From NCBI GenBank assembly GCA_036346225.1, contig JARFIW010001104.1:11434001-11498000 (forward strand): a stretch of DNA of 64,000 nt, in the 5' to 3' direction. A model generated the notes under the pieces. It was not told the origin of the DNA. It saw nothing but the letters and a program-made list of their open reading frames with translations, and did no database searches. Every line of letters begins with the position of its first letter. Position 1 is the stretch's first letter. The stretch comes from Platerodrilus igneus (lineage: Eukaryota; Arthropoda; Insecta; Coleoptera; Lycidae). Below, piece by piece: positions 5,108-57,281 of the stretch. The position numbers and the translations under genes are program-made.

Positions 5108-5339
5108 ATTTAAATTATAAAACCACTTCTAACGTTGTACCGTCATTAAATTTATCTAATAATAATACCGCTACTATTAATGTACAAAATACCTTACCTT
5201 CGTTAGAGGAACTATGCTATACTACTCCAGCCGAGTGGTCTAAGTGGTTACAAACCGTCAATTCCTTTTATCATAAAAAGACTGCTACCGTTTCACAACT
5301 TGTTAAAAAACCCTTCGATAACCGTCCACACTTATCTAT

Positions 5340-8300
5340 CTCAATTGGTTCCTTAAATGTAATTGCTTTACTGGATACAGGTTCTTCATGTTCTCTTATA
5401 AATAACGAAGGTTTACATCAATTATCTCAACAAAATATCAAAATTCAAATTATTCCCGAAAAACTTCCATAAATTTAGCTGACGATAATCAAATACATGT
5501 AACTGGTTCCTTAAGTTAAAAATTCGAGTAGAATCTCTTGAACGTGACGTTTTATTTTGATTGTGCCTGCATTAGCGTATCCTTTTCTACTGGGCGTTGA
5601 TTTCTGTAAACTTTTAATCTGTCACTTTACTTTCAGGATTTTCATGGCAAACCTCTATTAAAACGAACTCCTGTGCATCTACAGGAATATCTAACAAAAT
5701 CTCTCTTACTGACTCCCAAAATGTAACTCTTAACGCTACAATCGACAAATTTCGCAAACTTAATACCTCTGAACTTGGTTGCGTTACGACTGCGACACAC
5801 GTTATCTCTACAGGTGATGCCCTTCCCTTTAAGCAACGTCAATATCCCTTATCGCCTGCCTTACAAAAGCATTTACATGCTGAAATAGACAAAATGTTAG
5901 TATCTGGTGTTATCTCTCCTTCAAATTCACCATGGACCTCTCCCGTATTACTAGTTCGAAAAAAGAATGACGAATGACGTGTCTGTTTTGATGGCAGAAA
6001 GTTGAATTCTGTGACTGTCTCAGATGCTTATCCTTTACCTAGAACTGATTCAATTTTAAGCCGCCTTCGTAACGCAAAATTTATCTCATCTATCAACCTA
6101 AGACAAGCTTTTTATCAGATACCTCTTGACTTATCTTCTCGTCAAAAAACTGCTTTTTGTGTCCCAGGCCGAGGTCTTTTCGAATATAATTTTTTGCCAT
6201 TTGGTCTCTGTAACGCTCCTCAAACTTTGCAACGTACTATGGATCAAACGTTAGGTCCTATCTTACATCAAGAACGTGCCTTTGTGTTTTTAGATGATAT
6301 TTTAGTTATCTCAAGTTCTTTCGATGAACATATCGCCACATTAGACGAAGTTGCTGAACGTTTAAGCGCAGCAGGCTTTAAGATAAACTGGGAAAAGTCT
6401 CAATTTTGTCGTTCTTCCCTCACATTTCTTGGTTTTATTGTCGATGGGACTGGCTTACGAGCCGATCCTGCTAAAGTTGATGCCATTACTAAATTTAAAA
6501 CACCTAAAACTGTTACCGAAATCAAACGTTTAATTGGAATGATTAGCTATTATCGCATTTTTCTACCCAATCTTTCAACTATATCTGCACCCATTACCGC
6601 TTTAATAAAAAATAAAAAGAAATCCCAAACTATCGAGTGGAATTTAGAATCCCAACAGGCTTTCGAACAAATTAAAACATTAATCACTTCAGCACCTATC
6701 TTAATCTCTCCAAATTTCGATGATAAGTTTTATATACAAACCGATGCCTCACTTACTGGGTTAGGTGCAATGTTATTCCAGGTAAGCAATGGTTTAGAAC
6801 ATCCAATCGCTTATGCGAGTCGTGCCTTAACTTCTGCCGAACAAAAATACTCTGCTACTGAACGAGAACTATTGGGTGTTATCTTTGGCATCGAGAAGTT
6901 TAGAGGATATGTCGAAGGTACACACTTTACCGTAATCACTGATTGTGCAGCACTCACTTGGCTTAATAACTTGAAACAACCCGCAGGTCGTTTGGCAAGA
7001 TGGAACTTGCGTATATCTCAATTTACTTTCGATGTTAGGCATAGGCCTGGCAAATTAAATATCGTACCTGATGCCTTATCTCGAGATGTTTTTTCTCTTA
7101 ACCTTCCAAATTTAATTCTGGATACCTGGTACCTCAATATGATTAGAAAAGTTTCCGATACCCCCGACAAATTTCCTACCTTTCGTGTAACTAATAATAG
7201 ACTGTATAAATTTGTATCCTCGTCCCCACATAAAATATCGAATATACCTGAATGGAAACTCGTTGTGCCCACTGCAAACCGCAGTGAGGTGCTCAAATTA
7301 TGTCACGACGATCCCTTAGCTGCACACCTTGGTGTTACAAAAACTCTCGCTAAAATATCTGAATTGTATTACTGGCCCACACTTAAGCAATCTGTTTGTC
7401 GTTACATTAAAAGCTGTAAAATTTGTGGTTCTCATAAAAGTTCGCAAGATGCTCGCCCTGGTTTAATGGGTAACTTTAAGCGTGTATCTTATCCCTTTCA
7501 ATTAATATCGCTTGACTTATTAGGACCTCTCCCTCGATAGAAAAGAGGCAATCAATATCTTTTAGTCGTTACCGATTGGTTTTCTAAATTTGTTATGGTA
7601 CAACCCTTACGTAAAGCTACCTCCGCAGCAATAATTAAATTTCTAGAACAAAATGTCTTTCTTATCTTTGGTGTCCCCCAGATTATCCTTTGTGACAATG
7701 GTGCACAATTTATCTCTAAAGATTTTCAGAATTTCGTTAAAAGTTACAAAGTACAAAAAATTTGGTTTAACGCAAAATATCACCCCCAAGTAAACCCTAC
7801 CGAGAGAGTAAATCGAGTGTTAATTACCGCTATCTCGTCTTATATTGATTCAGACCATACTACATGGGATGAACATATCTTTGAAATTGCTCAAGCTTTG
7901 CGTACATCTAAACACGAAGCAACCCAATTCACTCCGTCTTTTCTTGTTTTTGGAAGATATACCCCAATCGATGGGAGTTACTATGGGTTAGTGCCTGACG
8001 ATACTAACGTAATTGAATTTGACGATAAAGTACGTTGGGACAAGGACCAACAGTCATTACCTTCTATCTTTAACGACGTTAGAAAAAATTTGTTAAAAGC
8101 TTACGAAAAGAGCAAGGACCATTATAACTTGCGTAAGCGAAATATTTCCTTTGCCTTGGGCGAACAAGTTTGGAAAAAGAACTATATCTTATCGGATGCA
8201 TCTAAGAAATTTTCTTCAAAATTGGCCCCTAAATTCATTCTTTGTAAAGTCACACGTGTTATTAGTCCCCTTATCTACGAACTTCAGGATACTGAAGGAA

Positions 8301-8365
8301 AACGTCAAGGCAGGTGGCATATTAAAGACCTTAAGCCATTCTCTGCCGACCCAAATGCTAATTAA
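5340..8365 (+). pseudogene. Pol polyprotein of the Gypsy element, disrupted
   Basis: The protease signature LLDTGSS lies near 5368-5390 in one frame, which ends in stop codons near 5472. RT, RNase H and integrase continue in another frame. That frame is interrupted by a TGA near 5977, where the family has Trp, and by a TAG at 7538-7540. RT shows the FLDD variant of the catalytic YxDD box (about 6287-6300) and a thumb with GMISYYRIFLPNLS. RNase H shows FYIQTDAS. The integrase has an H-H-C-C zinc finger ending CKICG (about 7300-7430), then the three acidic residues of its core in SLDLLGPL, LCDNGAQF and NPTERVN. The C-terminus ends with RWHIKDLKPF. Domain order RT-RH-INT places it in Ty3/Gypsy. 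Confidence 0.9.
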
Positions 8366-10445: not shown

Positions 10446-11101
10446 CTAACGTGTGGTATATATGACCAGACGTGGGAATTATTTTTTTCCTGAAAATTAA
10501 GTGAAAAAAGCTAACCCAATTTAGAAATGTAATTTGTCAGGTTAGCATATAAGGATTTAGTAGGCGGTACTTTTGGTAAATTTGTGGATTCACAACTGTG
10601 TCATGGACAAGTTAAATGTGCATCGGAGGAAACCAAAGTACCAGAAACAAAATTTGCCAGAGTGCAAGGTGACGCACTCTCATGAACATTTTTTAAAATT
10701 TGGGCACTTCTTGCCAAAAAAGAAGAATAGTTGATGCGACACTCATGTGTGTTTGCATATAAGAACTTTATGTTAGCTTTAGTTAGATAAGTTTAGATAG
10801 GTTTAGATAGGTTAGGCGACTTGTCGCACCCGTGTTAGTTTAAGTAGTGTTTCATGCTCCCCGACAAATTTGTGCTGTCGGTAATTAGTGTAGTCACAGA
10901 CTATCGGGCTACCTATTCCGTTTCCTGGTACTTCGGTAGACGTGTTATCGGTCGAAAAAACCAGGTGGCGCCTTATATAAACATTTTGTAGGTTTTAAGT
11001 TAGGATTTATGTAGGGTAGTTAGGACTTAGATTTTAAGCTGTTACTGTGCTAACAGACTTTTTCTTTTTTTAAGTTTTTTCTTTTGTGGCTTTGTCGCGA
11101 T
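10446..11101 (+). other. Noncoding sequence before the 3' LTR
   Basis: No gene is seen. Short GTTTAGATAG repeats occur near 10788-10815. The last 60 bp before the LTR is T-rich on this strand, and no canonical polypurine tract adjoins the LTR start. Confidence 0.5.
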
Positions 11102-11819
11102 TGTTACGTGCAAATCGAATTTGCACTTTAACATTTTAGGTTAGGTTTAGTTTTCTTGATGTAGGAAAGTTTCCCGCCATATTTTCAAATATGCAAGACG
11201 CGGGAACATTTTTAAATAGACTGGGCGGGGCTTCCGGTACGTCACAATAGTGAGTTGCGCAAGTGTTTTTATCCCCATAGGGGCAAGGCAATAGTAAAAA
11301 AAGAGTGGGGTCGTGTTTCCGTGACGCGCGGGAATCAGGGCTGTTCTCTTTCTACCTTCAAGTGAAACAGTCGTGCCGGGTGTCGTGTGTTATCTTATTA
11401 TGTAGATTTCCTTATCTTGATTATCTTGTTTTGTCGTTCCTTAATTAACCTATTCCTGTCGTTCCACTGCATATAGGAAACGGAGGTGACCCTAGAGCAG
11501 CCATGACCCCGAGATAAATTGGATGTCCAGCTCTACCAGCAGCAGCGGTGCCGAGGCCACCGTAGCGTGATTTCCTGCCGGTTACCGGATCCTTCACGTG
11601 AGTAGACTCTCTAATTTTTATTGTTTTAATTTTATGTAACCTCTCCTAATTATGGCGCAATATAAATTATCGGTGACGTCATGGTGTATCTTATGAACTT
11701 TGGTAATTGTATTACCGGCTTTTAAGAGCCATCTATCGCCATTTCAATGCACCACCATCTACGTGTAACATTTGGTAACTGCTTTACCGACAAGATAAAC
11801 ATTCAAATCAAGTGTAACA
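11102..11819 (+). repeat. 3' LTR of the Gypsy element
   Basis: This is the direct repeat of 2356-3073 with the same length (718 bp) and the same TGTTAC and GTAACA ends. The splice-donor-like CACGTGAGTA is retained, with GT at 11598. Most differences from the 5' copy fall within the last 25 bp before the terminal GTGTAACA. Confidence 0.95.
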
Positions 11820-25312: not shown

Positions 25313-28237
25313 CTATTGTAAAGGCCGCCTTGTAGTATAATAACCAGAAGCTGAAGCTGGCCATGGAGTACCAGGAGGTATTATTTGAATATGTAGTTCA
25401 TCAGGATTTGGTAAATACCAAGGTCTTTGAGGTTTGTACTGTAATACAGTGTAAGCAGTTTGTACATTAAACGTAGTTTCTAGAAGATCCAAAGTAGCTG
25501 AAGTTGTCTGTGATATATTTGATGGAATAGAAGATTTCTGGCTAGTATTTATTATTGACTGGTTTTCTAAATATACTGGTAGCAAAGATATTGCTTCACT
25601 TTTATTACTTCCGCTGACAGGTTCTATACCTTCTCCAGTTCGATTAAAATCCTGATTGAGAGATTCGCTTGAATTGACGCGTAAATATTGAATAGTTTCA
25701 GCTTTAACCGATTTTTCTGAAGATGAATTTTCCTTTTCTGATTTAGGTTTTTGTTCATTTGTAGGCATGATTTGCCCTAAAAGATCTCCTGGTCTCGGAT
25801 GGTACGACGGTCTTTGTGGACGATATTCAAGTGAAATTTTTGTTGTTGATGGTTTTATAATAGTTTTTGATGTAGTTGAAACTGTCGTTAACTGTGAAGA
25901 ATAACATGGTTTATCAGATGTTGGATCTATACCTTCATCTTTAGAAGCCACGGTAGATTTAGATGACTGCAAGTTAGGTCTTTCAGTGTAAAGACCTTCA
26001 GTTTCGCTTTCAGATTGTTCACTTGAAGAAGTACTGGATTTGGATGTAGAAGTATCAGCTGATTGTAGGACAGTTGATAAAGACACAAAATTTGGTTTGG
26101 AAGTACCTGCTGGTATGACTGGATCTACATACCACGGTTTTTGCGGCTTATATCCAAGCGAAACTTTTGTTGTTGAAACTGTGGTCGCAGATACTGCATC
26201 TGGTTTTGGCGTTCCACCTGGTATAACTGGATCTACGTACCATGGCTTTTGTGGACGATAATCAAGTGAAATCTTTGTTGTTGATGGTGTAGATAAATGT
26301 GAAGAATAATTTGGTTTATCAGAAGTTGAATCTTTACCATCACCTTTAGAAATCACAGTAGTTGTAGATGAGTGCAAAATTGGTCTTTCAGTGTAAAGAC
26401 TTTCAGTTTCGCTTTCAGATTGTTCACTTGAAGAAGTACTGGATTTGGATGTAGAAGTATCAGCTGATTGTAGGACAGTTGATAAAGACACAAAATTTGG
26501 TTTGGAAGTACCTGCTGGTATGACTGGATCTACATACCACGGTTTTTGCGGCTTATATCCAAGCGAAACTTTTGTTGTTGAAACTGTGGTCGCAGATACT
26601 GCATCTGGTTTTGGCGTTCCACCTGGTATAACTGGATCTATGTACCATGGTTTTTGCGGTCGATATCCAAGCGAAACTTTTGTTGTCGAAGCTGTGGTCG
26701 CAGATGCTGCATCTGGTTTTGGCGTTCCACCTGGTATAACTGGATCTACGTACCATGGCTTTTGTGGACGATAATCAAGTGAAATCTTTGTTGTTGATGG
26801 TGTAGATAAATGTGAAGAATAATTTGGTTTATCAGAAGTTGAATATTTACCATCACCTTTAGAAATCACAGTAGTTGTAGATGAGTGCAAAATTGGTCTT
26901 TCAGTGTAAAGACTTTCAGTTTCGCTTTCAGATTGTTCACTTGAAGAAGTACTGGATTTGGATGTAGAAGTATCAGCTGATTGTAGGACAGTTGATAAAG
27001 ACACAAAATTTGGTTTGGAAGTACCTGCTGGTATGACTGGATCTACATACCACGGTTTTTGCGGCTTATATCCAAGCGAAACTTTTGTTGTTGAAACTGT
27101 GGTCGCAGATACTGCATCTGGTTTTGGCGTTCCACCTGGTATAACTGGATCTATGTACCATGGTTTTTGCGGTCGATATCCAAGCGAAACTTTTGTTGTT
27201 GAAACTGTGGTCGCAGATGCTGCATCTGGTTTTGGCGTTCCACCTGGTATAACTGGATCTACGTACCATGGCTTTTGTGGACGATAATCAAGTGAAATCT
27301 TTGTTGTTGATGGTGTAGATAAATGTGAAGAATAATTTGGTTTATCAGAAGTTGAATCTTTAGCATCACCTTTAGAAATCACAGTAGTTGTAGATGAGTG
27401 CAAAATTGGTCTTCCAGTGTAAAGACCTTCAGTTTCGCTTTCAGATTGCTCAGTTAAAGAAGTATTGGATGTTGATGTAAAAGTATCAGCTGATTGTTGG
27501 ACTGTTGTTAACGACACTAAATTTGGTTTGGAAGTACCTGCTGGTATGACTGGGTCTATATACCACGGTTTTTGTGGCCGATATCCGAGCGAAACTTGTG
27601 TTGTGGAAACTGTGGTCGCAGATACTAATTCTGGTTTTGGCGTTCCACCTGGTATAACTGGATCTATGTACCATGGCTTTTGCGGTCGATATTCAAGTGA
27701 AATCTTTGTTGTTGATGGCGTTAAAATAGTTTTTGATGTAGTTGAAGCTGTAGATAAATGTGAAGAATAATATGGTTTATCAGAAGTTGGATCTTTACCT
27801 TCATCTTTAGAAGTCACGGTAGTTTTAGACGACTGCAAAATAGGTCTTCCAGTGTAAGGACTTTCGGTTTCGCTTTCAGATTCTTTACTTGAAGAGCTAC
27901 TGGATGTGGATGTAGAAGTATCTGCTGATTGTTGGACTGATGTTGATGAAGGCTCTAAATTTGGCTTGAAGAAGACATTGATGCTCTCTACGTTGGCAGC
28001 GGGGGAGTTTAAATTAAGTATTTGAAAAATAAAAATAGAAGCGTTTATGTGGAAAACATTTGGAAACGTATTGGTGTTGTTCAAATTATTCCACAGAGGT
28101 ACTAGTTTGTACTCCACTATGCCTCTAGAATTATCACTTACGTCTTTCAAATTAGTACTCGCTGGATTATTGAAATAATCTGAACGCACTCCGTATTTTA
28201 TTATTAGTAATAAATAAATCGTTTTTAGCGAGATCAT
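25313..28237 (-). CDS. Secreted Ser/Thr/Pro-rich tandem-repeat protein
   Basis: This 974-codon uninterrupted frame begins with a hydrophobic leader (MISLKTIYLLLIIKYG) typical of a signal peptide, with cleavage plausible near residue 19. Residues about 20-90 are non-repetitive. The rest is a two-level repeat. A ~36-residue unit carries Y[RK]PQKPWY[IV]DPVIP[GA]GT with KP shortly after, ten times in full plus two diverged copies (YRPQRPSYHP and YKPQRPWYLP). These are grouped into ~171-residue higher-order units, each introduced by a QSADT Ser/Thr-rich block, ESETE and YTxRPIL. No transmembrane segment or enzyme domain is seen. The start has A at -3, and polyadenylation signals follow. The organisation suggests an extracellular structural, mucin-like or secretion protein, but I do not recognise the family. 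An upstream noncoding exon is possible, since CAG lies just before the start codon region. Confidence 0.8.
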   Translation of the reverse strand: MISLKTIYLLLIIKYGVRSDYFNNPASTNLKDVSDNSRGIVEYKLVPLWNNLNNTNTFPNVFHINASIFIFQILNLNSPAANVESINVFFKPNLEPSSTSVQQSADTSTSTSSSSSSKESESETESPYTGRPILQSSKTTVTSKDEGKDPTSDKPYYSSHLSTASTTSKTILTPSTTKISLEYRPQKPWYIDPVIPGGTPKPELVSATTVSTTQVSLGYRPQKPWYIDPVIPAGTSKPNLVSLTTVQQSADTFTSTSNTSLTEQSESETEGLYTGRPILHSSTTTVISKGDAKDSTSDKPNYSSHLSTPSTTKISLDYRPQKPWYVDPVIPGGTPKPDAASATTVSTTKVSLGYRPQKPWYIDPVIPGGTPKPDAVSATTVSTTKVSLGYKPQKPWYVDPVIPAGTSKPNFVSLSTVLQSADTSTSKSSTSSSEQSESETESLYTERPILHSSTTTVISKGDGKYSTSDKPNYSSHLSTPSTTKISLDYRPQKPWYVDPVIPGGTPKPDAASATTASTTKVSLGYRPQKPWYIDPVIPGGTPKPDAVSATTVSTTKVSLGYKPQKPWYVDPVIPAGTSKPNFVSLSTVLQSADTSTSKSSTSSSEQSESETESLYTERPILHSSTTTVISKGDGKDSTSDKPNYSSHLSTPSTTKISLDYRPQKPWYVDPVIPGGTPKPDAVSATTVSTTKVSLGYKPQKPWYVDPVIPAGTSKPNFVSLSTVLQSADTSTSKSSTSSSEQSESETEGLYTERPNLQSSKSTVASKDEGIDPTSDKPCYSSQLTTVSTTSKTIIKPSTTKISLEYRPQRPSYHPRPGDLLGQIMPTNEQKPKSEKENSSSEKSVKAETIQYLRVNSSESLNQDFNRTGEGIEPVSGSNKSEAISLLPVYLENQSIINTSQKSSIPSNISQTTSATLDLLETTFNVQTAYTVLQYKPQRPWYLPNPDELHIQIIPPGTPWPASASGYYTTRRPLQ
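25980..27480 (-). repeat. 513-bp higher-order repeat within the coding region
   Basis: The same landmark sequence begins at 26040, 26445, 26958 and 27465, giving steps of 405, 513 and 507 bp. The 405-bp step equals a 513-bp unit lacking exactly one 108-bp (36-codon) subunit. Units at 26445 and 26958 differ at only a few bases, so the array has been homogenised or expanded recently. All steps are multiples of three. Confidence 0.9.
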
Positions 28238-29099
28238 ATTTTCACCCTGAACTTGAACGAACTATTTACAATCAAGTGAAGTTTTTGCTGTAAGAACTTG
28301 TTATTTACATTTTTAGTTAATGGTGTTAGTGATCTCTGCATACAACTGGTTTGCCTAGTTAAGAGCAGCAACCTCCGGCGTTCTTTCATGATGTATTAAC
28401 CGCATAGCCAAAAAACGTTTTGTCTATGATTAACCGTTGTTTGATAAATTTAGATTTTAAAAGGAATAAACTTATACAAATTCTTAAAAAAAGTAAAAGT
28501 TATCTTGAAATACCCTTTTGCGAATAAAATTTTAACTACAGACATCATTATTTTAAAAGAACTAAGTCAAAGTTATAAAATAGAAGATGGTTATTGAACG
28601 ATAGCTTTAGGTTAGAGTATCATTATACAGGGTGATTCATTAAGACTGAGAAATCTCTAAAGTAGAGATACTAGACCCCAAATTATTACATGCATTATAC
28701 CAATGTCGCTTGTTTAAGATACAGGGTATTCGAAGTTAAAATTTTATTTTGAAATTTTTTAATAAATTTGAAAGTTTCGATAGAATCGATTTGAAATTTT
28801 GCGCTTTTGCTTTTCTTTTGGCATGAAGATCATGGATTTGAAGCTTGCTTTGGCTTACTCATAGAGGGCGCTAGTTACAGCCCGTTTCTGCAGTAAATCA
28901 AAACAAAGTTTTTGTCTGGTAAACTACGGTTAAAATAGATGAAAAATATAAAAGGTAGTTCTATTTTACACAAAAAGCTATTCCTGTTTAATTTATGTAA
29001 CCCTGTTGGTTTTTGAGCTATTAACTTATATATCCATTTCGAATGAACCTGCACCTTGCCAAAGTTCTAGATTACTAGAACAGGTGAAATGAACTAAAG
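28238..29099. other. Gene upstream flank and unclassified repeat DNA
   Basis: This lies upstream of the repeat-protein gene. No clear TATA box was identified on the minus strand. From about 28627 the sequence ATACAGGGTGATTCATTAAG resembles the CAGGGTG ends seen in many insect interspersed repeats; a similar motif occurs at 60517. No gene is seen. Confidence 0.4.
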
Positions 29100-35575: not shown

Positions 35576-35591
35576 ATATATATATATATAT

Positions 35592-35754
35592 AAACCAATT
35601 ACATGAGATGTATCTGTAAATACACATTGTATTTACCTATACAAATCGAACTGGTATTTGCATAGCCATTACAAAACAATGGCTATGCAAATACCAGTTC
35701 GATTTGTATAGGTAAATACAATGTATTTACAGATACATCTCATGTAATTGGTTT
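35592..35754. repeat. Long near-perfect palindrome (79-bp arms)
   Basis: The left arm 35592-35670 (starting AAACCAATTACATGAG) is the inverse of the right arm 35678-35754, with only a 2-base length difference and a 7-base spacer (ACAAAAC). It is flanked by (TA)n on both sides. Such a structure can extrude as a cruciform or be transcribed as a long hairpin. No gene is seen. Confidence 0.95.
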
Positions 35755-35786
35755 AATTGTAACTGCAGATTGCAGAGAAAGTTTTG

Positions 35787-36518: not shown

Positions 36519-36566
<48 letters not shown>

Positions 36567-36567
36567 T

Positions 36568-37978
36568 TGTACTCCATCCCTCTTTTATTACTTTATTTTT
36601 ATCGTCGCGCGTCTTTTCTTCTAAATTTCAATGCCTTTTATATGATGTGCAAACACCTATTGCACGCCACGTACTTTGCAACGTTTGGTTGGTTATTTAA
36701 TCCAAAATTGTTATTAAAATGCCTCGACTATTTGAAACTCTTTATTCTCAGGGTGTCCACCTACTTACCGTGGGTTCAGTGGTAAGTAGATGTGCAATGC
36801 CCAACCAAACTGCACTCTCTTTTGTTCCAAATTAATCCGTCCTCTTTAATTCGTACTCAATCCAAATCTATCGTCGACCTCTTCAAAATCACTCAATGCC
36901 CCGCTACATATACATCCATATCAAAATCAATCTTCGTACCTTTTTATAACCACTCAATGCCCTGCTACCTATAAATCTGTATCCAAATCGATCCCAAATA
37001 TTCTTCCTTCTTACAATTCCAATCCGATGCCTTCTGCCTTTATCAATATCGTTCCAAATCTATCTTATTATTCGTCGCTTCGCCGTCGCACTAATACAAA
37101 ACTTTACTTTTCCTTGTCGTCGCTATTACTTATTTATGTACCGATGCTGCTCTTTACCCTTCTTTAATAATCAAACTATTTCAAAATCAAACACGTTTAT
37201 TAATCTTCCAAATTTTTACACAAATTAGCGCAGTTCTTTAAAATACGTCTTTATACCAAAAATATTCAAAATAAACTCCTCCTTGTTTACTTTCCAAGGT
37301 GATAATTATAACATTACTTGCCTACTACATTACAAATTACATAAACTAAAATCGTCCAATAATATTTAAACACTAAGTTTGTGTCGCACATACCATAAAT
37401 TATGTCCTTTTACACTTTCATAGTTTACACATAATATTCTAGTATTGGTTCTAAATATTTTACAATCCTTCAATCACATTTGACATTGTTATAACTTATA
37501 ATTTTGAAATTACATATTCGTCCAAAAGTTGATTCTAATTAAATAAAAGCCAAAATAAATCACACATGACCCTGGATCGGCGTGGTTGATAGTGGACATC
37601 CATAGACGCATCCGGTTTTCGGATGGCAAATGTACTTTCAATGGCCTATTAAATTCTAACTCAGTATAAACCCTTGAGCACTGTATATTTTATCACGTCA
37701 TCAAGTCATTTTAATTTACCTTTTGGCACTTACATTTCAACTACCCTTTTGAATACTTTAGCATTTGTAAAGTACGGCAAACATACATTTTTAAATTATG
37801 TGATCAGATATATGTATCATTTTACTTGGCATACACTACCTTCTACTAAACAACCCTTAGAACCCTTGGTAGCTCCTCTGACACTACACTGGCCCCACTG
37901 ATTTTGAATAAAAGTGGAAATTTCGTCTGTTTTACTCTTTTCTTGGTGTGCATAATTTCTAGTTTTTATTTAAAATCA
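36568..37978 (-). repeat. 3' LTR of the minus-strand Gypsy
   Basis: In element orientation it starts TGATTTTAAATAAAAAC right after a G-rich tract and ends GGAGTACA. It includes a small hairpin CTACTTACC/GGTAAGTAG (36761-36789). The 155 bp at 37824-37978 have no counterpart in the other LTR, which is truncated there. Confidence 0.85.
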
Positions 37979-43212: not shown

Positions 43213-43218
43213 CCTTCT

Positions 43219-44476
43219 TGTACTCCACCCCCTCTTTTATTACTTTATTTTTATCGTCGCGCGCCTTTTCTTCTAAATTTCAATGCCTTTTATATGATGT
43301 GCAAACACCTATTGCACGCCACGTACTTTTGCAACGTTTGGTTGGTTATTTAATCCAAAATTGTTATTAAAATGCCTCGACTATTTGAAACTCTTTATTC
43401 TCATGGTGTCCACCTACTTACCGTGGGTTCAGTGGTAAGTAGATGTGCAATGCCCAACCAAACTGCACTCTCTTTTGTTCCAAATTAATCCGTCCTCTTT
43501 TAATTCGTACTCAATCCAAATCTATCGTCGACCTCTTCAAAATCACTCAATGCCCCGCTACATATACATCCATATCAAAATCAATCTTCGTACCTTTTTA
43601 TAACCACTCAATGCCCTGCTACCTATAAATCTGTATCCAAATCGATCCCAAATATTCTTCCTTCTTACAATTCCAATCCGATGCCTTCTGCCTTTATCAA
43701 TATCGTTCCAAATCTATCTTACTATTCGTCGCTTCGCCGTCGCACTAATACAAAACTTTACTTTTCCTTGTCGTCGCTATTATTTATTTATGTACCGATG
43801 CTGCTCTTTACCCTTCTTTAATAATCAAACTATTTCAAAATCAAACACGTTTATTAATCTTCCAAATCTTTACACAAATTAGCGCAGTTCTTTAAAATAC
43901 GTCTTTATACCAAAAATATTCAAAATAAACTCCTCCTTGTTTACTTTCCAAGGTGATAATTATAACATTACTTGCCTACTACATTACAAATTACATAAAC
44001 TAAAATCGTCCAATAATATTTAAACACTAAGTTTGTGTCGCACATACCATAAATTATGTCCTTTACACTTTCATAGTTTACACATAATATTCTAGTATTG
44101 GTTCTAAATATTTTACAATCCTTCAATCACATTTGACATTGTTATAACTTATAATTTTGAAATTACATATTCGTCCAAAAGTTGATTCTAATTAAATAAA
44201 AGCCAAAATAAATCACACATGACCCTGGATCGGCGTGGTTGATAGTGGACATCCATAGACGCATTCGGTTTTCGGATGGCAAATGTACTTTCAATGGCCT
44301 ATTAAATTCTAACTCAGTATAAACCCTTGAGCACTGTATATTTTATCACGTCATCAAGTCATTTTAATTTACCTTTTGGCACTTACATTTCAACTACCCT
44401 TTTGAATACTTTAGCATTTGTAAAGTACGGCAAACATACATTTTTAAATTATGTGATCAGATATATGTATCATTTT
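43219..44476 (-). repeat. 5' LTR of the minus-strand Gypsy, truncated
   Basis: This matches 36568-37823 along its whole length (1258 versus 1256 bp). At 44476 the similarity stops abruptly at TATCATTTT, and unrelated sequence starting GTAACAATTTTATT follows. The outer 155 bp of the LTR are missing and were not found elsewhere in the window. Confidence 0.9.
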
Positions 44477-46492: not shown

Positions 46493-47640
46493 CCCGGACT
46501 TTAAACAGTTTCGCTCTCTTAGATTTTCGATTTTGATTCAATACTTTAAACAATTTGCTCTTATATTTTGGTGATTATTGAATACTTTAAAACAGTTTGC
46601 TCTTTACGTGCTACGATACAAGTTATTATGCATTAGTGCACTTAGAAAAGAAGATACAAGGTAATAAAGTCTAGTTATATTTGCGAGTATTACTGTACCA
46701 ATTATCGAAATTTGTAACGATAAATGAATAAACAAAAGTAGGCAGTTTTGGGGTGTAGCGTGAACGAATTATGAATTTCTTTGCTATTTTTCGGGGGTGT
46801 TAATAATTAAATGTTATTCGTAATCGTGATTGGATCCACAAAACAAGATTTTGATATACTTAGATGAGTTCCTGAGAAGCCCTGAAACAATTTTAGATGA
46901 ATGGTGGTGTAGAAAATTTTAAAAGCGTTCAGAATCAGAAGCCGTAAACATAACCCAGTTGGATTGGTGTGATTAACAAGGACGATGTACATTGGAGCCA
47001 CGAGTGCATTAACCTTCAGGTAACTTATGCTTTGTTGTTCGATTTTGATGTTTTGGTGTGTGTTGAATAACTTTATAATTTGTTTGCTAAAAATGGACAG
47101 TAGTGAATTTGTACAAACAACAAATTTTTAATTTTAAGGTGAAATTTTCTTGTTTAAGTAGAAAGGAGTATTTAGCAGTTTATGTTCTTGATTATGATGA
47201 AAATTTGGGTCTGTCTTTGAGCTCAATTAGACTAACCTGTTTGATTAACGTAAAGGGGGGAGATGCTCCTTTGTACTCAGACTCAGGTCTGCCAATATAT
47301 TGTTATATTAATTAGTAGGCATCCTACAAGGACTTTAATTCTGGATGCAAATTAAAATGATGACAAATTTAATCTTGAAATTTTATGATACTGAAATTTA
47401 TGCTACAATTTAATTTTGAAATTTTAATGTACTATGAATATTGATGTAAATAGAGTTAACGTTGATGTTTGTGGTAAATGTGTTTGTTTTTTTTATGAAT
47501 GAGGATGAAAGTTTTAACTAGGTGAGCAGCCGAGGCGGAAAGAGTAAAGAGGCGATCATCAGAAGAGATTCAACAGGGCCAGAATCACAGCAAATCTTGG
47601 TGCCAAATTCGAGAGGTTCGAATATTTTTTTCACGAATAA
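46493..47640. other. No gene seen
   Basis: AT-rich sequence with only short frames lacking domain support. Towards 47500 a short GC-balanced stretch (GCAGCCGAGGCGGAAAGAG) precedes the repeat family that hosts the foldback element. Confidence 0.4.
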
Positions 47641-47851
47641 TGGTGAGGTTACACAGCAATATATATATTAACTCTTTATTGGTGAAACTTATTGTTAGTA
47701 AAAGTATACATTAGCAATGTTGGAGTGGACAATGAAAAGATATACAAAAAGTTGTCAATTAACTGTTTTTTTGTTGCTTATCATAAACGACATTTCCAAT
47801 AATTTGGGATTATTGATTGTCTTATAATTAAATAAGAAATCAGGAAATTTG
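47641..47851 (+). repeat. Repeat family R, copy 2, left of the foldback element
   Basis: This aligns with 55440-55580 (shared CATTTCCAATAATT, TTTTTGTTG and GAAAATTTG landmarks). Its last 8 bases, GAAATTTG, are the left target duplication of the foldback element. The rest of this repeat copy continues at 52185. Confidence 0.75.
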
Positions 47852-48125
47852 ACTTCTGTTAAGCTGGCAAGACCAAATCGGCAGAATCGATTCAGACCTA
47901 TTGCATTTTTTAGGGTTTATTTGTGCCATTAATAAAAATTTTGTGCTACGTGCCGTTTTGAAAAAAATCGTGGTGCTGCTAGCTTAATATTAAGCTAGCA
48001 GGACCACATGAAAAAAACAACAAAAAAAGGTATAAATACAACGGCCAGAATTTGTGCTAATTTGTGTCGTCCAAACAAAAGCAGCTAAATAGATTCATTC
48101 CGCTTGAAACAACGACAAATTATTT
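47852..48125 (+). repeat. Left outer terminal inverted repeat
   Basis: This includes CAAGACCAAATCGGCAGA, ACCTATTGCATT, TTGTGCTACGTGCCGTTTTG, a 26-bp perfect palindrome CTGCTAGCTTAA/TTAAGCTAGCAG around a central TA pair (47976-48001), a TATA box and GCTAAATAGATTCATTCCGC. Each of these except the second half of the palindrome recurs inverted at 51905-52184. Confidence 0.85.
48030..48037 (+). promoter_or_regulatory. Inward-facing TATA box in the left inverted repeat
   Basis: AAGGTATAAATACAACGGCC is a strong TATA match pointing towards the satellite array. The same sequence occurs in the right inverted repeat on the other strand (plus-strand GGCCGTTGTATTTATAC at about 51991-52007), so both ends could drive transcription inward. 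Confidence 0.5.
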
Positions 48126-48899
48126 TTATCACGATTAGGTTCAAGAGTAAAGTACCCTCTTGCACGAGCAGAATCAATCGGTACTGCGATACTCGAAGCA
48201 TCATAATTCGTGCCTCTCAAATATTCATTCACAGATTTTGTTCCCAACCCCTTCTCCGAAAAACCACCCGCGAAACCTATTGAACACAAGAGTATAAAGT
48301 ATCCGTTTCCAAAAGCAGAATCAATCGGTACTGTTACACTCTAAACACACATATTTGTGCTTTTCAAATGTTCACTCAAGAATTTTGTACCTCACACCTC
48401 TGAAAAACCACCTCCAAAACCTACTCGGCAAAGAGTAAAGTATCTGTTTTCACGAGCAAAATCAGTCGGTACTGCTACATTCGAAGCACACTAATTTGTG
48501 CTTTTCAAATGTTCACTCTCAGATTTTGTACCTTATCTTTTCTCTGAAAAACCACCCGCAAAACCTACTCGGGACAAGAGTAAAGTATCCGTTTCGACAA
48601 GCAGAATCAATCGGTACTGTGACACTCGAAGCACACTAATTTGTGCTATTCAAATGTTCACTCCCGGATTTTGTACCCCACCCCTTCTCTGAAAAAACAC
48701 TTGCGAAACCTATTCGGCACAGTATCCGTTTCCACGAGCAGAATCAATCGGTACTGCTACATTCGAAGCACACTAATTTGTGCTTTTCAAATATTCACTC
48801 ACGGATTTTGTACATCATCCCTTCTCTGAAAAACCACCTCCGGAACCTACTAAGCACAACAGTAAAGTATCCGTTTCCACCAACAAAATTAATCGGTAT
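48126..48899 (-). repeat. Satellite array, left arm, ~6 units of ~144 bp
   Basis: Unit landmarks (AATCGGTACTG) recur near 48177, 48325, 48467, 48612, 48748 and 48893. Units contain CAAATGTTCACTC, CTCTGAAAAACCACC and GAGTAAAGTATCCGTTTCC. They are in the opposite orientation to the right arm. Confidence 0.9.
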
Positions 48900-51800
48900 A
48901 TTTCGCGGGTGGTTTTTCAGAAAAAGGGTGGGGGTACAAATTTCGTGAGTAAACATTTGAGAAGCACAAATTAATGTGCTTTGAATGTAGCAGTACCGAT
49001 TGATTTTGCTCATGGAAGCGGATAATTTACTCTTGTACCGAATAGGTTTCTCGAGTGTTTTTTCAGAGAATGAGTGTGGTACAAAATTCGTGAGTAAATA
49101 TTTAAATAGCACAAATTAGTGTGCTTCGAGTGTCGCAGTACCGATTGATTATGCTTGAGGAAACTGATACTTTTGTGGCTAGTAGATTTCGGGTGGTTTT
49201 TCAGAAAAGGGATGGGGTACAAATTTCGTGAGTGAACATTTGAGAAGTAGAAATTAGTGTGCTTCACATGTAGCAGTACCGATTAATTTTGCGCGTGGAA
49301 ACGGATACTTTACTCCTGTGCTGAGTAGGTTTCGCGGGCGGTTTTCAGAAAAAAAGTGGGGTACAAAATTCGTGAGTAAATATTTAAATAGCACAAATTA
49401 GTGTGTTTCGAGTGTCGCAGTACCGATTGATTCTGCTTGTGGAAACTGATACTTTTGTGGCTAGTAGATTTCGCGGGTGGTTTTTCAGAAAAGGGATGGG
49501 GTACAAATTTAGTGAGTAAACATTTGAGAAGTACAAATTAGTGTGTTTCAAATGTATCAGTACCGATTAATTTTGCTCGTGGAAACGGATACTTTACTCC
49601 TGTGCTGAGTAGGTTTCGCGGGCGGTTTTTCAGAAAAGGAGTGGGGTACAAATTTCGTGAGTGAACATTTGTGAAGCACAAATTAGTGTGCTTGAAATGT
49701 AGCAGTACCGATTGATTTTGGTCGTGGAAACGAATACTTTACTCTTGTGGCGAGTAGGTTTTGCGGATGGTTTTTCAGAAAAGGGATGGGGACAAATTTC
49801 GTGAGTAAACATTTGAGAAGTACAAATTAATGTGCTTCAAATGTAGCAGCACCGATTGATTTTGCTCGTGGAAACGAATACTTTACTTTGTGCTGAGTAG
49901 GTTTTGCGGGTAGTTTTTCAGAAAAGGGGTGGGGTACAAATTTCGTAACTGAACATTTGAAATGCACAAATTATAGTGCTTCGAATGTTGCAGTAGCGTT
50001 TGATTCTGCTCGCGGAAACGGATACTTTACTCTTGTGCCGAGTCGGGTTCGGAGGTGGGTTTTTAGAGAAGAGGAGGTACAAAATCCGTGAGTGAATATT
50101 TGAAAAACACAAATTAGTGTGCTTCGAATATAGTAGTACCGATTGATTCTGCTCGTGGAAACGGATACTTTACTCTTGATCCGAGTAGGTTTCGGAGGTG
50201 GTTTCTCAGAGAAGAGATGAGGTACAAAATCCGTGAGTGAACATTTGAAATGCACAAATTAGTGTGCTTCAAATATAGCAGTAGCGTTTGATTCTGCTCG
50301 CGGAAACGGATACTTTACTCTTGTGCCGAGTCGGGTTCGGAGGTGGGTTTTTAGAGAAGAGGAGGTACAAAATCCGTGAGTGAATATTTGAAAAACACAA
50401 ATTAGTGTGCTTCGAATATAGTAGTACCGATTGATTCTGCTCGTGGAAACGGATACTTTATTCTTGTGCCGAGTGGGTTTCGGAAGTGGTTTTTTAGAGA
50501 AGGTGTGAGCTACAAAATCCGTGAGTAAACATTTGAAAAACACAAATTATTGTGCTTTGAATATAGTAGTACCGATTGATTCTGCTCGTGGAAACGGATA
50601 CTTTACTCTTGGGCCGAGTAGGTTTCGGAGGTGGATTTTCAGAGAAAGGGTGAGGTACAAAATCCGTGAGTGAACATTTGAAAAGCAAAATTAGTGTGCT
50701 TCGAATGTAGCAGTACCGATTGATTCTGCTCGTGGAAACGTATACTTTACTCTTGTGCCGAATATGTTTCGCAAGTGGTTTTTCAGATAATGGGGGGAAC
50801 AAAATTCGTGAGTGAATATTTAAATAGCACAAATTAGTGTGCTTTGAGTGTCGCAGTACCGATCTATTCTGCTCATGGAAGCGAATATTTTGCTCTTGTG
50901 TTGAGAAGTTTTCGTGGGAGGTTTTCCAGATGACGGGTTAGGTACAAAATCTGTGAGTGAACATTTGAAAATAACAAATTAGTGTGCTTAGAATGTAACA
51001 GTACCGATTGATTTGCTCGTGGAAATGGATACTTTACTCTTGTGCCGAGTAGGTATCGCGGTTGGTTTTTCAGAGAAATGGTTGGGTACAAAATCTGTGA
51101 ATGAATATCTCAGAGGCACAAATTATGTTGCTTCGAGTGTTACAGTACCGATTGATTTTGCTCGGGGAAACGGATACTTTATTCTTGTGCTGAGTAGGTT
51201 TCGCGGGTGGTTTTTCAGAAAAGGAGTGAGGTATAAAATCCATGAATGAACAATTGAAAAGCACAAATTAGTATGCTTCGAATGTAGCGATACCGATTGA
51301 TTGTGCTCGTGGAAACGGATACTTTACTCTTGTGTCGAATAGGTTTAGCAAGTGGTTTTTCAGAGAAAGGGTGGGGAACAACATTCGTGAGTGCATATGT
51401 GAATAGAACAAATTAGTGTGCTTCGAGTGTCGCAGTACCGATTGATTGTGCTCATGGAAACGGATGCTTTACTCTTGTGCTGAGAAGATTTCGTGGGTGG
51501 TTTTTCAGATAAGGGGTTATGTACAAAATCTATGCGTGAATATTTGAAAAGCGCAAACTAGTGTGCTTCGAATGTAGTAGTACCGATTGATTCTGCTCGT
51601 GGAAACTGATACTTTACTCTTGTGCTGAGAAGGCTTCGCGGGTGGTTTTTCAGAATAGGGGCGAAGTACAAAATCCGTGAATGAACATTTGAAAAGCAAA
51701 AATTTGTGTGCTTCGTATGTAGCAGTACCGATTGATTCTGCTTGTGAAGATCGATACTTTACTCTTCTATCGAATAGGTTTCGCGGTGGTTTTTCATAGA

Positions 51801-51904
51801 AGGGGTTGGGTACAAAATCTGTGAATGAATATTTGAAAGGCACAAATTATGATACTTCGTGTGTCGCAGTACCGATTGATTCTGCATGTGCAAAAGGGTA
51901 CTTT
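48900..51904 (+). repeat. Satellite array, right arm, ~21 units of ~144 bp
   Basis: The landmark CCGATTGATT recurs from 48996 to 51872 with a step of 138-145 bp, mostly 143-145. Pairs of adjacent units are repeated as 288-bp dimers: the unit with the distinctive AGCGTTTGATTCTGCTCGCGG occurs at 49996 and again at 50284, with near-identical surroundings. This indicates recent unequal exchange. The many short frames across the array reflect only the periodicity. Confidence 0.92.
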
Positions 51905-52184
51905 ACTCTTGATCCTAAGCGTGGTAAAAGTAATTCGCCGTTGTTTCAAGCGGAATGAATCTATTTAGCTGCTTGTTTTAGACGGTACAAATTCTGGCCG
52001 TTGTATTTATACTTTTTTTTCTTTCTTTTTTTTGCATATCAAGCTAGCAGCACCACGATTTTTTTCAAAACGGCACGAAGCACAAAATTTTTTTAATGGC
52101 ACAAATTAGCACTAAATAAGCACTAAATAATGCAATAGGTCTGAATCGAGTCTGCCGATTTGGTCTTGCCAGGTTAACTGAGGT
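51905..52184 (-). repeat. Right outer terminal inverted repeat
   Basis: This is the inverse of 47852-48125 with small indels. It has an inward TATA box (about 52000, minus strand) and lacks one half of the palindrome found in the left copy. It ends in the ACCTCAGTTAACC terminus. Confidence 0.85.
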
Positions 52185-52520
52185 GAAAATTTGGAGTGGC
52201 GAATATTGTCAATGGCTTGGATTTAATAATTTTGCTTTCGGGTAGTTTTATTTTAGAAATTCCTGGCTAGATTTGGGGGTAGGAATTTATTTTTAGGGAA
52301 GTACATTGTATGTGTACTGAAATTATTTTTGTGCTAATAGGGGTCAAGTTTAGGTTGATTTTTATTTTAATTTATTTAGGGAATAGGTAAAGTCAGAGAT
52401 TTGTGAAAAATATTTAGCTACCCGAGTGATTGTCTTATTGTAAGGAGCATTTTGTTTTGAGAAATTTTTTTAATTGTGACCAACTTTAGGATACCACAGC
52501 AACATATATTTTTTAGGTAT
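52185..52520 (+). repeat. Repeat family R, copy 2, right of the foldback element
   Basis: This begins with the right target duplication GAAAATTTGGAGTG and follows 55572-55870: shared CCTGGC[TC]AGA, AGTTTAGGTTGA/AGTCTAGGTTGA, GATATTTGTNAA-like and TTTTGAGAA landmarks appear in the same order. Confidence 0.7.
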
Positions 52521-52829
52521 GTATTTTTTTAGTAAAACAAACAAAATTCTATTTCAGAATTATATACAAGGTTATAGCTAAAATAATTTCTAGTTAGTCA
52601 AAGCCTTTATATCAATTTTACGCCTTTGTTGGTTCACAATTTTAGAATTACTCTACGTGTGGTTTTTCTAAGCGTAATTGATAGCTTGAAGGAAATATAT
52701 AGACAGTATTTGTATACAAATAATACTTACACTAAACTTAAATAGCAAAGACAGCAAATAACAATGAAGCGATGTGCTTACGTATAACAAACTTAAATTG
52801 TGCTAAATCAACAGGAAAATACTGGCGAG
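52521..52829. other. 3' flank of the CRAL-TRIO exon, no second gene
   Basis: This is the downstream side of the minus-strand exon. No AATAAA was recognised within about 300 bp, so the transcript end could not be placed. Confidence 0.4.
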
Positions 52830-53252
52830 CTAATCTACTTGCAGTTGTTTAAAACTTCCTTCGATTCCAACACCCAATTCTTCATTCATTTCAGTCACTA
52901 ATTTACAATTAGCCTCGTCAACTTCAATATACATATTATCTAATGCTAATATTTTTTCTCGATTTTCTTTTAGTTTAATTTTCAACTGTTCCACCATTTC
53001 GGAAAGAGAAACTGTTCCGCCATATTCTTTAGGTAGTATCTTTGGATCAACTTTTTCATGAAGCTCACTTATACTTTTAGGAACCTGTAAATGTTCCGAA
53101 TGATTAGGGACTGAACACACAAATAGGTTACTTACATAAGTTCGATTCTTTAATTTGTCTGAGAGAATAGACAGTGCAAATTCAACCAACTTTGCTGCAT
53201 GTGGAGCCATGTTGAGAAGGTAGTGTCCTTTGTGCCGCATTGGTGAGGTGTT
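52830..53252 (-). CDS. Terminal exon of a CRAL-TRIO lipid-transfer protein
   Basis: From a splice acceptor (TTTGTCGTAG, with AG at plus 53253-53254) the exon encodes NTSPMRHKGHYLLNMAPHAA, then SILSDKLKNR and ILPKEYGGTVSLSEMVEQ, ending in an acidic tail at the stop near 52830. These are the C-terminal half of the Sec14/CRAL-TRIO fold, with the R-x-K-x-x-x-x-x-N strand, the LS-x-K-L-x-x-R helix and the LP-x-E-YGG motif. They occur as in insect alpha-tocopherol-transfer-protein-like and clavesin-like proteins, which carry hydrophobic ligands in the cytosol. An in-frame TAG overlaps the acceptor, so the Met at 53240 is internal and not the true start. The N-terminal CRAL-TRIO-N helices and the first half of the lipid domain were not found up to 64000, implying long introns or exons outside the window. 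Confidence 0.8.
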   Translation of the reverse strand, partial: NTSPMRHKGHYLLNMAPHAAKLVEFALSILSDKLKNRTYVSNLFVCSVPNHSEHLQVPKSISELHEKVDPKILPKEYGGTVSLSEMVEQLKIKLKENREKILALDNMYIEVDEANCKLVTEMNEELGVGIEGSFKQLQVD

Positions 53253-54919: not shown

Positions 54920-55900
54920 GGTTGGTTATTAATATAATGTTAAGTTAACAGTGAAGTTAAAGTACAAAGCTTCAAGCAGAGTGAATAGGTGGCGATCGAC
55001 ACATAAAAGTGAAATACGTCGGCAGATGCAGGGTAGTTTCAAAAACGCGCGGGTGCGGATATAATGTCGTGATAACCGTTTAGAAAAATATGTTAGGGCC
55101 TAGTGAGTTCATCCGTCCATTAAATTGGAATTTTGTGGTGTATTCGGGCAAGGGAGTTTTCTATTTTTGAATAATGCAACACATGGTTGCAAGAAAACAT
55201 TGGTGTTATTAAATCGCCTGAAATAAAATTGTAATATTATAAGCTTGTATATACGTCTTTGTAATTTATATGTAAATTCTAGATGTAAACATGGTTGGAA
55301 GTTTATGACATAGAACGTTAATCAAACATGAAAGTAATTATTTTTATTGATTAAGAATTTACCGACGAAACGAGAGTTGACTAAATTTAAGTTTAATATT
55401 ATCAGTTTAAAATATCAGGAAGCATATACGCATTGATTTTACATTAGTTTAAAAGGAACAACGAAATGATGTAACGAAAAGTTGATATTTAACTGTGTTT
55501 TTGTTGTTTGTTATTAATGACATTTCCAATAATTGGTATTTATAATTGTCATGTAACAATATTGAAAACAAGAAAATTTGGAGTGATGATTGTTTTGTTG
55601 ATAGATTAGATTTAAGGTCTTTTTAGGATTTCCTTTATTTAGCAATACCTGGCCAGACTCGAAGTTAAGAAATAGTTTTTTTAAAGTATATTTGTATTTC
55701 GTATAAAATTATTTAAAGTTAATATAGCTTAAGTCTAGGTTGAATTTTATTTGAATGTACTTAAAAACTAGGAACACCGATATTTGTAAAGGATATCCAG
55801 TTACCCCAGAGACAGAATCTTACGTGAAAGAGGTATTTTATTTTGAGAAGTTTCTTTATTTATGACAGAATTAATAAGTATTTTTCAGATAGTTTGAGAA
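54920..55900 (+). repeat. Repeat family R, copy 3, containing the empty foldback site
   Basis: The left part (54970-55240) aligns with 35140-35400. The right part (55440-55870) aligns with both flanks of the foldback element, 47700-47851 and 52185-52490, without interruption at GAAAATTTGGAGTG (55572-55585). It has no gene. It defines a noncoding interspersed family of at least ~950 bp. Confidence 0.7.
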
Positions 55901-57281
55901 AGGTGATAAAATTTAAGAAACAGAAGCATATGAGATTTAAGCAGAATAACCTTCTTTAGTATTTCGGCGTTGCCAAATGCCGTAGTACAAAATTAATTGG
56001 CTTTGCCTCAGGCTTTAAACAGTTAGATGGTAAGGTAAACAGAGTGATAATTAATTTGCATGCCCATTTTGTAGAGTGGATCAATTAATATTGTTTGTAA
56101 AATTTGTGCATTCTTCTTCCTTGGCAGTTCACTCTGTCTTCTTTCTTCATCTTTTATCCTGACTTTTGTCCCTCCCCAGAATCTTAATAGGGACGTCCAC
56201 CGGAATAGAGTGAGACTATGTCTGTACCCACCAGGAGTGTAGATAAGTAACGTCATTCATTTGTTTGTATGTCGCTTCCCGGAAAAATAAAGCAGTTGTG
56301 CTTTTTTGGTTGCCCTCCACAGAGCGAAGTAAAAGGAGCTTGCAAGGTAGGGACAGAACAGTTGCTTAAATTAGGTTCTCTTACAACAGAAAAAGCAATC
56401 CCTAGTACTATCCTACATGGTTCCAAACGGGTAAATTAAATATCATAACAATTGTTGATTTTATCAAAATGCACGAGCTGAACACACAACAAACTAAAGA
56501 ATCGCGAGAATTTCCAAGTCATTTTTTTGTGCTACCCAAAACTCTGCACGCTCATTGGCCAAACAGAATTTGTACATTCTTTTACACGCGAAAACTGAAC
56601 CACACAACTTCATTGGTTAAAGACATCATTATACCTTTTTCAACACAGGAAGCATAGGAAATGAAGGTGTATAAATACAATTTCAAATTCTACGAAAGAC
56701 ATTCGTAAGTGCTCCCCATAGCCTAAAGAATCAATTGGCAGTACTCACCATAGCCTGCTAACACTTCAACGAGCAGTGCTCTCCATAGCCTGCTTATTCT
56801 CCGCCAGTGACGCTTGTTACATTCTTACGTTGTCCCACAAGTAGAGTTACCTGGATTTTTGTCTCAAGTGCTCTCTACATGGACACCATCTCCAACATGA
56901 TCCTCCTTCTCGACTGCACGTTCAGATACTGTCTCCAGGTGGCCTCTTACCATCAGGAACACAGCGTTTCTACTTAAATTCTTCCACACAAGTGCACGGT
57001 ACTACCATGCTCTCGTACACTTGCAGGTCCATCCATACATTTGCTTGGTATTCAGAGTACATACGCCGCCTTCATACACCCAGTACTAAAATTGTACTTA
57101 CTTGCTTTATAATTTTGATTGTTTACAGCATAGCCAAATATATTCGAGCACCCACTTGTGCTAATTTAACAAAAACTTCACTCAATCACTTTGCTAAGTA
57201 GCTAGGTAGGCGATCGTAGGTAAAGACAAGAGAGAAGAGAGCGATTCACCACCTCCTACGGGTTTATATCAGCTTCAACAG
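55901..57281. other. Unassigned DNA, possible LTR
   Basis: A TATA-like GTGTATAAATAC (56670-56677) is followed by three imperfect copies of AGTGCTCNCCATAGCCTGC near 56709, 56740 and 56775. On the minus strand a G-rich tract at 57282-57292 directly precedes TGTTGAAGCTGATATAAACC, which looks like a polypurine tract joined to an LTR start at 57281. A second LTR copy was not found. No gene is called. Confidence 0.35.

What the first reader, a model, noticed from the sequence alone, without database searches (positions are those of the whole stretch)
47852..52184. A 4.33-kb foldback transposon built of inverted ~144-bp satellite arrays
Outer inverted repeats of about 270 bp enclose two opposed arrays of the same ~144-bp satellite (about 6 and 21 units) that meet near 48900. 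It has no coding capacity. The structure matches foldback elements, but the satellite sequence and termini (ACYTCWGTTAASCTGGCAAG) are not ones I recognise. The arms are very unequal, so most of the right array has no partner in the left.
Basis: partly seen in the sequence, partly recalled or inferred. Interest (0 to 1): 0.85.

Follow-up and report, generated by a model that had tools for sequence, protein, structure and literature searches.

The report
Beetle foldback transposon made of satellite
This is a real jumping-DNA element, one of many copies in what is probably a leaf-beetle genome, whose body is two back-to-back runs of one satellite repeat; such elements are a known kind, but the copies of this family differ enough to show how their repeat arms change and spread.

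Summary
Element 47852-52184 (4333 bp) has 273-290-bp inverted ends around 5.2 and 20.8 units of one ~145-bp satellite in opposite orientation, meeting at 48898/48901. It is a transposon copy: an uninterrupted paralogue of the insertion site lies in the same window, and the two flank alignments overlap there by exactly 9 bp. In the 2.71-Gb genome the end core, shared with a sibling family, occurs 214 times, against 2 for a reversed control. Of 25 two-ended copies of this family, 21 have a 9-bp target duplication matching 7/9 or better, 13 perfectly. Arm lengths (1.3 to 48 units) vary independently and the centre differs between copies. Three of 32 copies (sibling included) carry inverted copies of their own flank and no direct duplication, which suggests that one arm was copied onto the other. 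The sibling family carries a different inverted satellite. Best reading: a non-autonomous foldback transposon moved by a transposase made elsewhere, probably Mutator/Rehavkus-type; none was found. Closest known: Tetris and Rehavkus-1_TC. Free satellite arrays could not be tested.

The parts
47843..47851 (+). left target-site duplication GGAAATTTG
   Evidence: 8 of 9 identical to the right one; empty-site paralogue
47852..48141 (+). left terminal domain (END), starts ACTTCTGTTAAGCTGGCAAG
   Evidence: a 349-bp query from here matches 40 other listed near-full-length ends at 82-89% identity; family consensus from 36 ends
47976..48001 (.). 26-bp palindrome CTGCTAGCTTAATATTAAGCTAGCAG inside the left END; the same region recurs in the sibling family's repeat unit
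   Evidence: sequence; self-inverted match 47970-48007; conservation; matches in sibling arms
48031..48038 (+). TATAAATA, TATA-box-like; use as a promoter not tested
   Evidence: sequence; conserved in the END consensus
48142..48898 (-). left satellite array, ~145-bp units, 5.2 units
48899..48900 (.). centre where the two arrays meet; no spacer beyond two bases
48901..51911 (+). right satellite array, 20.8 units, with ~288-bp dimer substructure
51912..52184 (-). right terminal domain (END), inverted copy of the left (9.4% different over aligned columns)
52185..52193 (+). right target-site duplication GAAAATTTG
55281..56103 (+). paralogue of the insertion site without the element (empty site; target at 55572-55580)
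   Evidence: flanks align contiguously across it; the two flank alignments overlap by exactly 9 bp

Best explanation
A copy of a non-autonomous foldback DNA transposon family. Shown: it inserted with a 9-bp target duplication; copies share a ~290-bp terminal domain; the body is one satellite in opposed arrays; arm lengths vary independently; the centre differs between copies; three of 32 copies (sibling included) have inverted copies of their own flank and no direct duplication. Inferred: a transposase made elsewhere binds the terminal domain (terminal 20 bp, perhaps the palindrome) and moves the element by cut-and-paste; by duplication length and architecture it is most likely of the Mutator/Rehavkus kind. 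Also inferred: arrays grow and shrink by unequal exchange or slippage, the centre is remade by deletions across it, and a lost arm can be recopied from the other arm, running on into the flank.
For: Empty-site paralogue with an exact 9-bp overlap. Target duplications: of 32 two-ended copies tested, 15 match 9/9, 4 match 8/9, 4 match 7/9 and 9 match 6/9 or less; of 992 cross-pairings none reaches 8 and five reach 7. For this family alone 13, 4, 4 and 4 of 25. In the 15-copy test, 7 are perfect at 9 bp and none at 7, 8, 10 or 11. 214 end cores genome-wide, both families together, against 2 in the control. All 36 ends in the window and the first 20 fetched regions fit the rule END(+) / satellite(-) ... 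satellite(+) / END(-), one of them (L017, left) with 3.4 kb in between; of 7 satellite-bearing ends of this family in a further sample of 20 ends, 6 fit and one (L074) has the array reversed. Arm lengths within a copy are no more alike than random pairs (15 copies). Inverted flanks in 3 of 32 copies, at 12, 12 and 10 of 12 bases, cross-pair maximum 9 of 12 in 992. In L024 the inverted likeness is 94.5% over 146 flank bases, 95.3% over the END, 91% over the first two units and 80% in the third, and its two ENDs are the most alike of 15 copies (0.05 against 0.079-0.122).
Against: No transposase carrying these termini was found. Comparing by eye the listed Mutator (MULE) hits (150 scored of 1048 candidates) with the ENDs listed, both lists incomplete, the nearest pair is about 45 kb apart. 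Eight MULE loci read 1.3 kb downstream show neither the terminus core nor anything like the L012 PHD fragment. 4 of 25 copies of this family and 5 of 7 siblings lack a clear target duplication; inverted flanks explain 3 of these 9. Evidence that arms are homogenised separately is weak: mean unit distance is 0.138 within an arm against 0.171 between opposite arms, but without the 49-unit copy L011 it is 0.157 against 0.171, and only 12 of 20 elements show the difference; the window's own element does not. Arms are also not wholly independent: the END-adjacent units and the ENDs of one copy are closer to each other than to those of other copies (0.117 against 0.164; 0.096 against 0.108).
Confidence: 0.88

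Rival explanations
1. An ordinary free satellite array, inverted here by an isolated rearrangement.
For: The body is satellite and the arms are unequal.
Against: Fixed ends, 9-bp target duplications, an empty site, and the same architecture in the fetched copies.
Confidence: 0.02
2. A Helitron/Helentron-type element carrying satellite repeats, as in molluscs and flies.
For: Helitron/Helentron elements often carry arrays of satellite-like repeats in their central regions (passages of PMC12628747).
Against: Long terminal inverted repeats, inverted arrays and 9-bp target duplications. That Helitrons lack such duplications is recalled, not from a call.
Confidence: 0.01
3. A foldback element moved by a P-superfamily transposase, as Galileo is.
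For: Galileo F copies also have ~210-bp tandem repeats in the inverted repeats, with differing numbers at the two ends (passages of PMC3573991).
Against: Galileo has 7-bp target duplications; here none of 15 copies has a perfect 7- or 8-bp match at the border while 7 are perfect at 9.
Confidence: 0.05
4. Moved by a Phantom/NOF-type Mutator transposase (as Tm1 of nematodes and, from recall, Drosophila FB) rather than a Rehavkus-type one.
For: Tm1 has 9-bp duplications, composite repeats of unequal number and a Phantom-like transposase (passages of PMC3169594); this genome has many MULE genes.
Against: The nearest beetle precedent with satellite units of this size in inverted ends is Rehavkus-1_TC (passages of PMC10218199). 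The 8 MULE loci sampled did not match, which is weak evidence.
Confidence: 0.3

Closest known systems
Tetris (Drosophila virilis foldback transposon; PMC4079207)
   Same: Outer terminal domain, then satellite-size tandem repeats (~220 bp) in each inverted repeat, variable unit number, 8-10-bp target duplications, no coding.
   Different: Unrelated host. Tetris has a middle domain and, in its full form, an inner domain; here 15 of the 20 centres printed have at most 8 bases between the arrays. Tetris repeats share a 37-bp stretch with its terminal domain; here no significant likeness was found (an 11-mer only), though the sibling family shows such a derivation. Tetris repeats also form long free arrays; that could not be tested here.
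Rehavkus-1_TC (Tribolium castaneum, Repbase; described in PMC10218199 and PMC6446971)
   Same: Beetle host; 9-bp duplications for the group; a 164-bp satellite (TCsat23) in short arrays, mostly five and eight units, in its inverted termini.
   Different: Rehavkus-1_TC is 9.5 kb and the group encodes a PHD-finger transposase; this element is non-coding.
Tm1 (Meloidogyne Mutator/foldback; PMC3169594)
   Same: 9-bp duplications; tandem repeats of unequal number in the two inverted repeats.
   Different: 14-bp repeats, nematode host, non-inverted terminal motifs.
FB (Drosophila foldback)
   Same: Inverted arrays of tandem repeats, unequal arms, little or no middle (recalled).
   Different: 31-bp repeats (recalled); not compared by sequence.
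Satellite macro-dyad arrays of Tribolium (PMC13081366)
   Same: Satellite in two opposed subarrays; that paper says macro-dyads of satellite arrays had been documented exclusively within Tribolium (passages).
   Different: Those are multi-kilobase putative (peri)centromeric arrays with conserved inversion sites; here dispersed mobile copies with varying centres.

Membership tests
Foldback-type DNA transposon | long inverted repeats built largely of tandem repeats | tested here: met
Foldback-type DNA transposon | dispersed copies with shared termini and target-site duplications | tested here: met
Mutator/Rehavkus group | 9-bp target-site duplication | tested here: met
   group value from the PMC6446971 Table 1 passage
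Mutator/Rehavkus group | transposase of the group linked to these termini | tested here: inconclusive
   no listed MULE hit within about 45 kb of a listed end, compared by eye on incomplete lists; 8 loci read 1.3 kb downstream negative; the genome search with a PHD-finger fragment beside one copy (L012) did not complete
Rehavkus | sequence relation to Repbase Rehavkus elements or their transposase | not testable with these tools
   no Repbase here; literature passages only
Tetris | sequence relation to Tetris/DAIBAM termini or TIR-220 | not tested
   sequence not held; architecture compared only
P superfamily (Galileo) | 7-bp target duplications | tested here: not met
   of 15 copies none perfect at 7 or 8, seven perfect at 9
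Helitron/Helentron | no target-site duplication, no long terminal inverted repeats (recalled) | tested here: not met

The most novel reading that the evidence does not exclude
One foldback lineage is a repeated maker of satellite DNA. Under one core terminus it carries at least three different tandem repeats: the 145-bp unit here, a ~152-bp unit built from the sibling's own end domain, and a third 145-bp array in the middle of one sibling copy. It spreads these as ready-made head-to-head satellite modules whose arms are rewritten by fold-back repair that can capture flanking DNA. Such mobile modules could seed the palindromic (macro-dyad) satellite arrays known in beetles.
Probability: 0.25. 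Interest if true: 0.7.

Novelty: new member of a known kind. Interest (0 to 1): 0.48.

Why it matters
The family offers tens of dispersed satellite arrays with known ends, so array growth, arm-to-arm exchange and loss of the centre can be counted copy by copy. The three inverted-flank copies point to a repair route at long inverted repeats that can be tested. If free arrays turn out to descend from these elements, it would show how opposed satellite arrays arise in beetles.

Tried and rejected
Coding capacity and an autonomous partner: the interiors of odd or large copies were examined. L020 holds a nested Ty3/gypsy-like element. L017 has 3.4 kb between END and array without a listed frame over 98 aa. 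L093, beside END L092, holds non-LTR-like frames and an integrase-like frame, with no second END in the stretch. L094, upstream of L012, is non-LTR-like. L069 and L070, two 10-kb stretches of a 24.9-kb sibling, have no listed frame over 132 aa. These labels are my reading of frames, not family searches. L012 has a PHD-finger fragment (PF00628, 22.5 bits, under its 24-bit cut-off; also weak C1 and DUF6276 matches) directly beside a satellite array; one unnamed homologue was found at E 2e-6 and it stays unexplained. Four of 20 sampled ends of this family lack satellite in the first 800 bp (L075, L086, L091, L092); L075 runs into non-LTR-like sequence, and no transposase was seen in any. RNA families: only a chance mir-633 hit on the palindrome, 23.8 bits against a cut-off of 90. 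Viral contigs: no match to the terminus. Satellite derived from END: the longest shared word is 11 bases (13 of 1000 simulations reach it), but local alignment is not significant (70 of 1000); not shown, kept as a possible binding motif. Microhomology at centres: 0 to 8 bases in 15 copies, with ambiguous ties; no claim made. Separate homogenisation of the two arms: looked clear, mostly due to one long copy when rechecked; downgraded. A CENP-B-box-like resemblance in the unit was noticed from recall and not pursued.
Full report
Observation. Unit profiling finds 26 near-full-length units, 5 and 21. A ~288-bp dimer period runs through the right array, and recent block duplications are visible: the units at 50049 and 50337 differ by 2.9%.

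It is an insertion. The flanks 47566-47851 and 52185-52696 align, without the element, to one contiguous stretch 55281-56103 of the same window. With blastn the left-flank match ends at 47851/55580 and the right-flank match starts at 52185/55572, so they overlap by exactly 9 bp. The direct repeats are GGAAATTTG and GAAAATTTG, 8 of 9. This fixes the element at 47852-52184.

It is a family. The window lies in a 2.71-Gb assembly. A 349-bp query from the left end gave 216 matches, many of them satellite only (356 candidates, 40 scored); besides the window's own, 40 near-full-length ends are listed at 82-89% identity. The 20-bp end core with up to 2 mismatches occurs 108 + 106 times, the reversed control 0 + 2; this count includes a sibling family. 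I fetched 20 regions (L009-L028). All 20 carry END and satellite; 14 show two ENDs and 6 show one; 19 show both opposed arrays, the exception being L020, where a nested element separates the arms. With the window, 36 of 36 ends fit the orientation rule, and arms span 1.3 to 48.2 units. In 32 two-ended copies (15 from these regions and the window, 17 from further end pairs) the 9-bp duplications match 9/9 in 15, 8/9 in 4, 7/9 in 4 and 6/9 or less in 9; of 992 cross-pairs none reaches 8 and five reach 7. Seven of the 32 belong to the sibling family. For this family the figures are 13, 4, 4 and 4 of 25; for the sibling 2 of 7 are 9/9 and 5 are 6/9 or less.

How the arms behave. Arm lengths within a copy are no more alike than random pairs (15 copies; mean log ratio 0.92 against 0.81 for random pairs). 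Unit distances over 275 units are 0.138 within an arm, 0.171 between opposite arms of one element and 0.172 between elements. A recheck shows that about half of the within-arm pairs come from the long copy L011; without it the values are 0.157, 0.171 and 0.171, and only 12 of 20 elements have the within-arm value lower, the window's not among them. So separate homogenisation of the arms is at best weak. Positional identity is clear mainly for the unit next to each END: 0.164 to the same position in other elements against about 0.20 to other positions, and 0.117 to its counterpart in the same element. The two ENDs of a copy are slightly closer (0.096) than ENDs of different copies (0.108). The centre where the arms meet differs: grouped by eye, 20 centres fall into 14 types. 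Nine copies fall into three shared types (L013, L022, L023, L024 with a related AT-rich spacer; L017, L019, L026; L011, L012), and 11 are singletons. In one sampled end, L074, END is cut near base 105 and joined to satellite in the wrong orientation, as a deletion across the centre would do.

Inverted flanks. In L024 the flank next to one end is present, inverted, next to the other: 94.5% over 146 bases of flank, 95.3% over the END, 91% over the first two units and 80% in the third. Testing all 32 copies, L024, C744b and C867 have inverted flanks at 12, 12 and 10 of 12 bases, against a cross-pair maximum of 9 in 992. None of the three has a direct target duplication (2, 2 and 3 of 9). The simplest reading is that one arm was lost and recopied from the other, running on into the flank. 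Insertion into a palindrome is possible but should leave a 9-bp direct repeat.

Sibling family. Seven end pairs start ACGCCTCTTAAGCTGGCAGG or a near variant instead of ACCTCTGTTAAGCTGGCAGG, and 9 of 20 further sampled ends carry this family's arm. Where read (C858, C1099b and those 9 ends) the arms are arrays of a ~152-bp unit that resembles END positions about 68-214, palindrome included, i.e. built from the terminal domain. One copy (C858, L071, 9/9 duplication) has a third 145-bp array of 9.7 units in the middle, with no match to the satellite here. One pair (C1099b) lies 24.9 kb apart with a perfect 9-bp duplication and no listed frame over 132 aa in the 20 kb read.

Transposase. Not found. 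MULE domains are common in this genome (150 scored of 1048 candidates). Comparing the listed places by eye with the listed ENDs, the nearest pair is about 45 kb apart; neither list is complete. Eight MULE loci read 1.3 kb downstream gave nothing. A PHD-finger fragment abuts a satellite array in L012. Rehavkus transposases carry a PHD finger (passages of PMC6446971) and Rehavkus-1_TC has a 164-bp satellite in its inverted termini (passages of PMC10218199), so this is a lead, but the genome search with the fragment did not complete.

Host. The CRAL-TRIO-like frame at 52830-53252 has its two species-named hits in Leptinotarsa decemlineata and Psylliodes chrysocephalus, so a leaf beetle is likely; the species is unknown to me.

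Literature. The listings showed no leaf-beetle foldback of this kind; Repbase and subscription papers were not searched. Read: Tetris PMC4079207 (abstract, first parts of Results and Discussion); passages only of PMC3169594, PMC3573991, PMC10218199, PMC6446971, PMC13359780, PMC12628747, PMC13081366 and PMC11049206.

Verdict. A genuine foldback transposon family, new to me, of a known kind. The bold reading, that the lineage repeatedly makes satellites and could seed palindromic satellite arrays, rests on two families and one copy with a third repeat, and on untested free arrays.

Noticed in passing
L071 (C858), L069/L070 (C1099b), C744, C867, C684, C1295: Sibling foldback family with the same core terminus; where its arms were read they are a different ~152-bp inverted satellite. 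One pair is 24.9 kb apart with a perfect 9-bp duplication, one copy has a third tandem repeat in the middle.
   Followed up: partly
L024:403-551 and 2542-2687; C744b (L031/L032); C867 (L037/L038): Flanks of the element are inverted copies of each other and the direct target duplication is missing.
   Followed up: partly
L012:7319-7863: PHD-finger protein fragment directly abutting a satellite array; possible transposase remnant.
   Followed up: partly
window 2355-3073 and 11101-11819: Direct repeats 98% identical flanking gag/pol-like frames (3704-8365): an LTR retrotransposon by appearance.
   Followed up: no
window 36564-37823 and 43215-44476: Direct repeats 99.1% identical around pol-like frames: a second, younger-looking LTR retrotransposon by appearance.
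   Followed up: no
window 25313-28261 (-): 982-residue open frame with internal ~171-residue and 36-residue repeats (WYIDPVIPGGTPKP-type).
   Followed up: no
window 52830-53252 (-): CRAL-TRIO-like exon beside the element; species-named hits Leptinotarsa and Psylliodes.
   Followed up: partly
window 35591-35755: 165-bp palindrome, 93% self-complementary.
   Followed up: no
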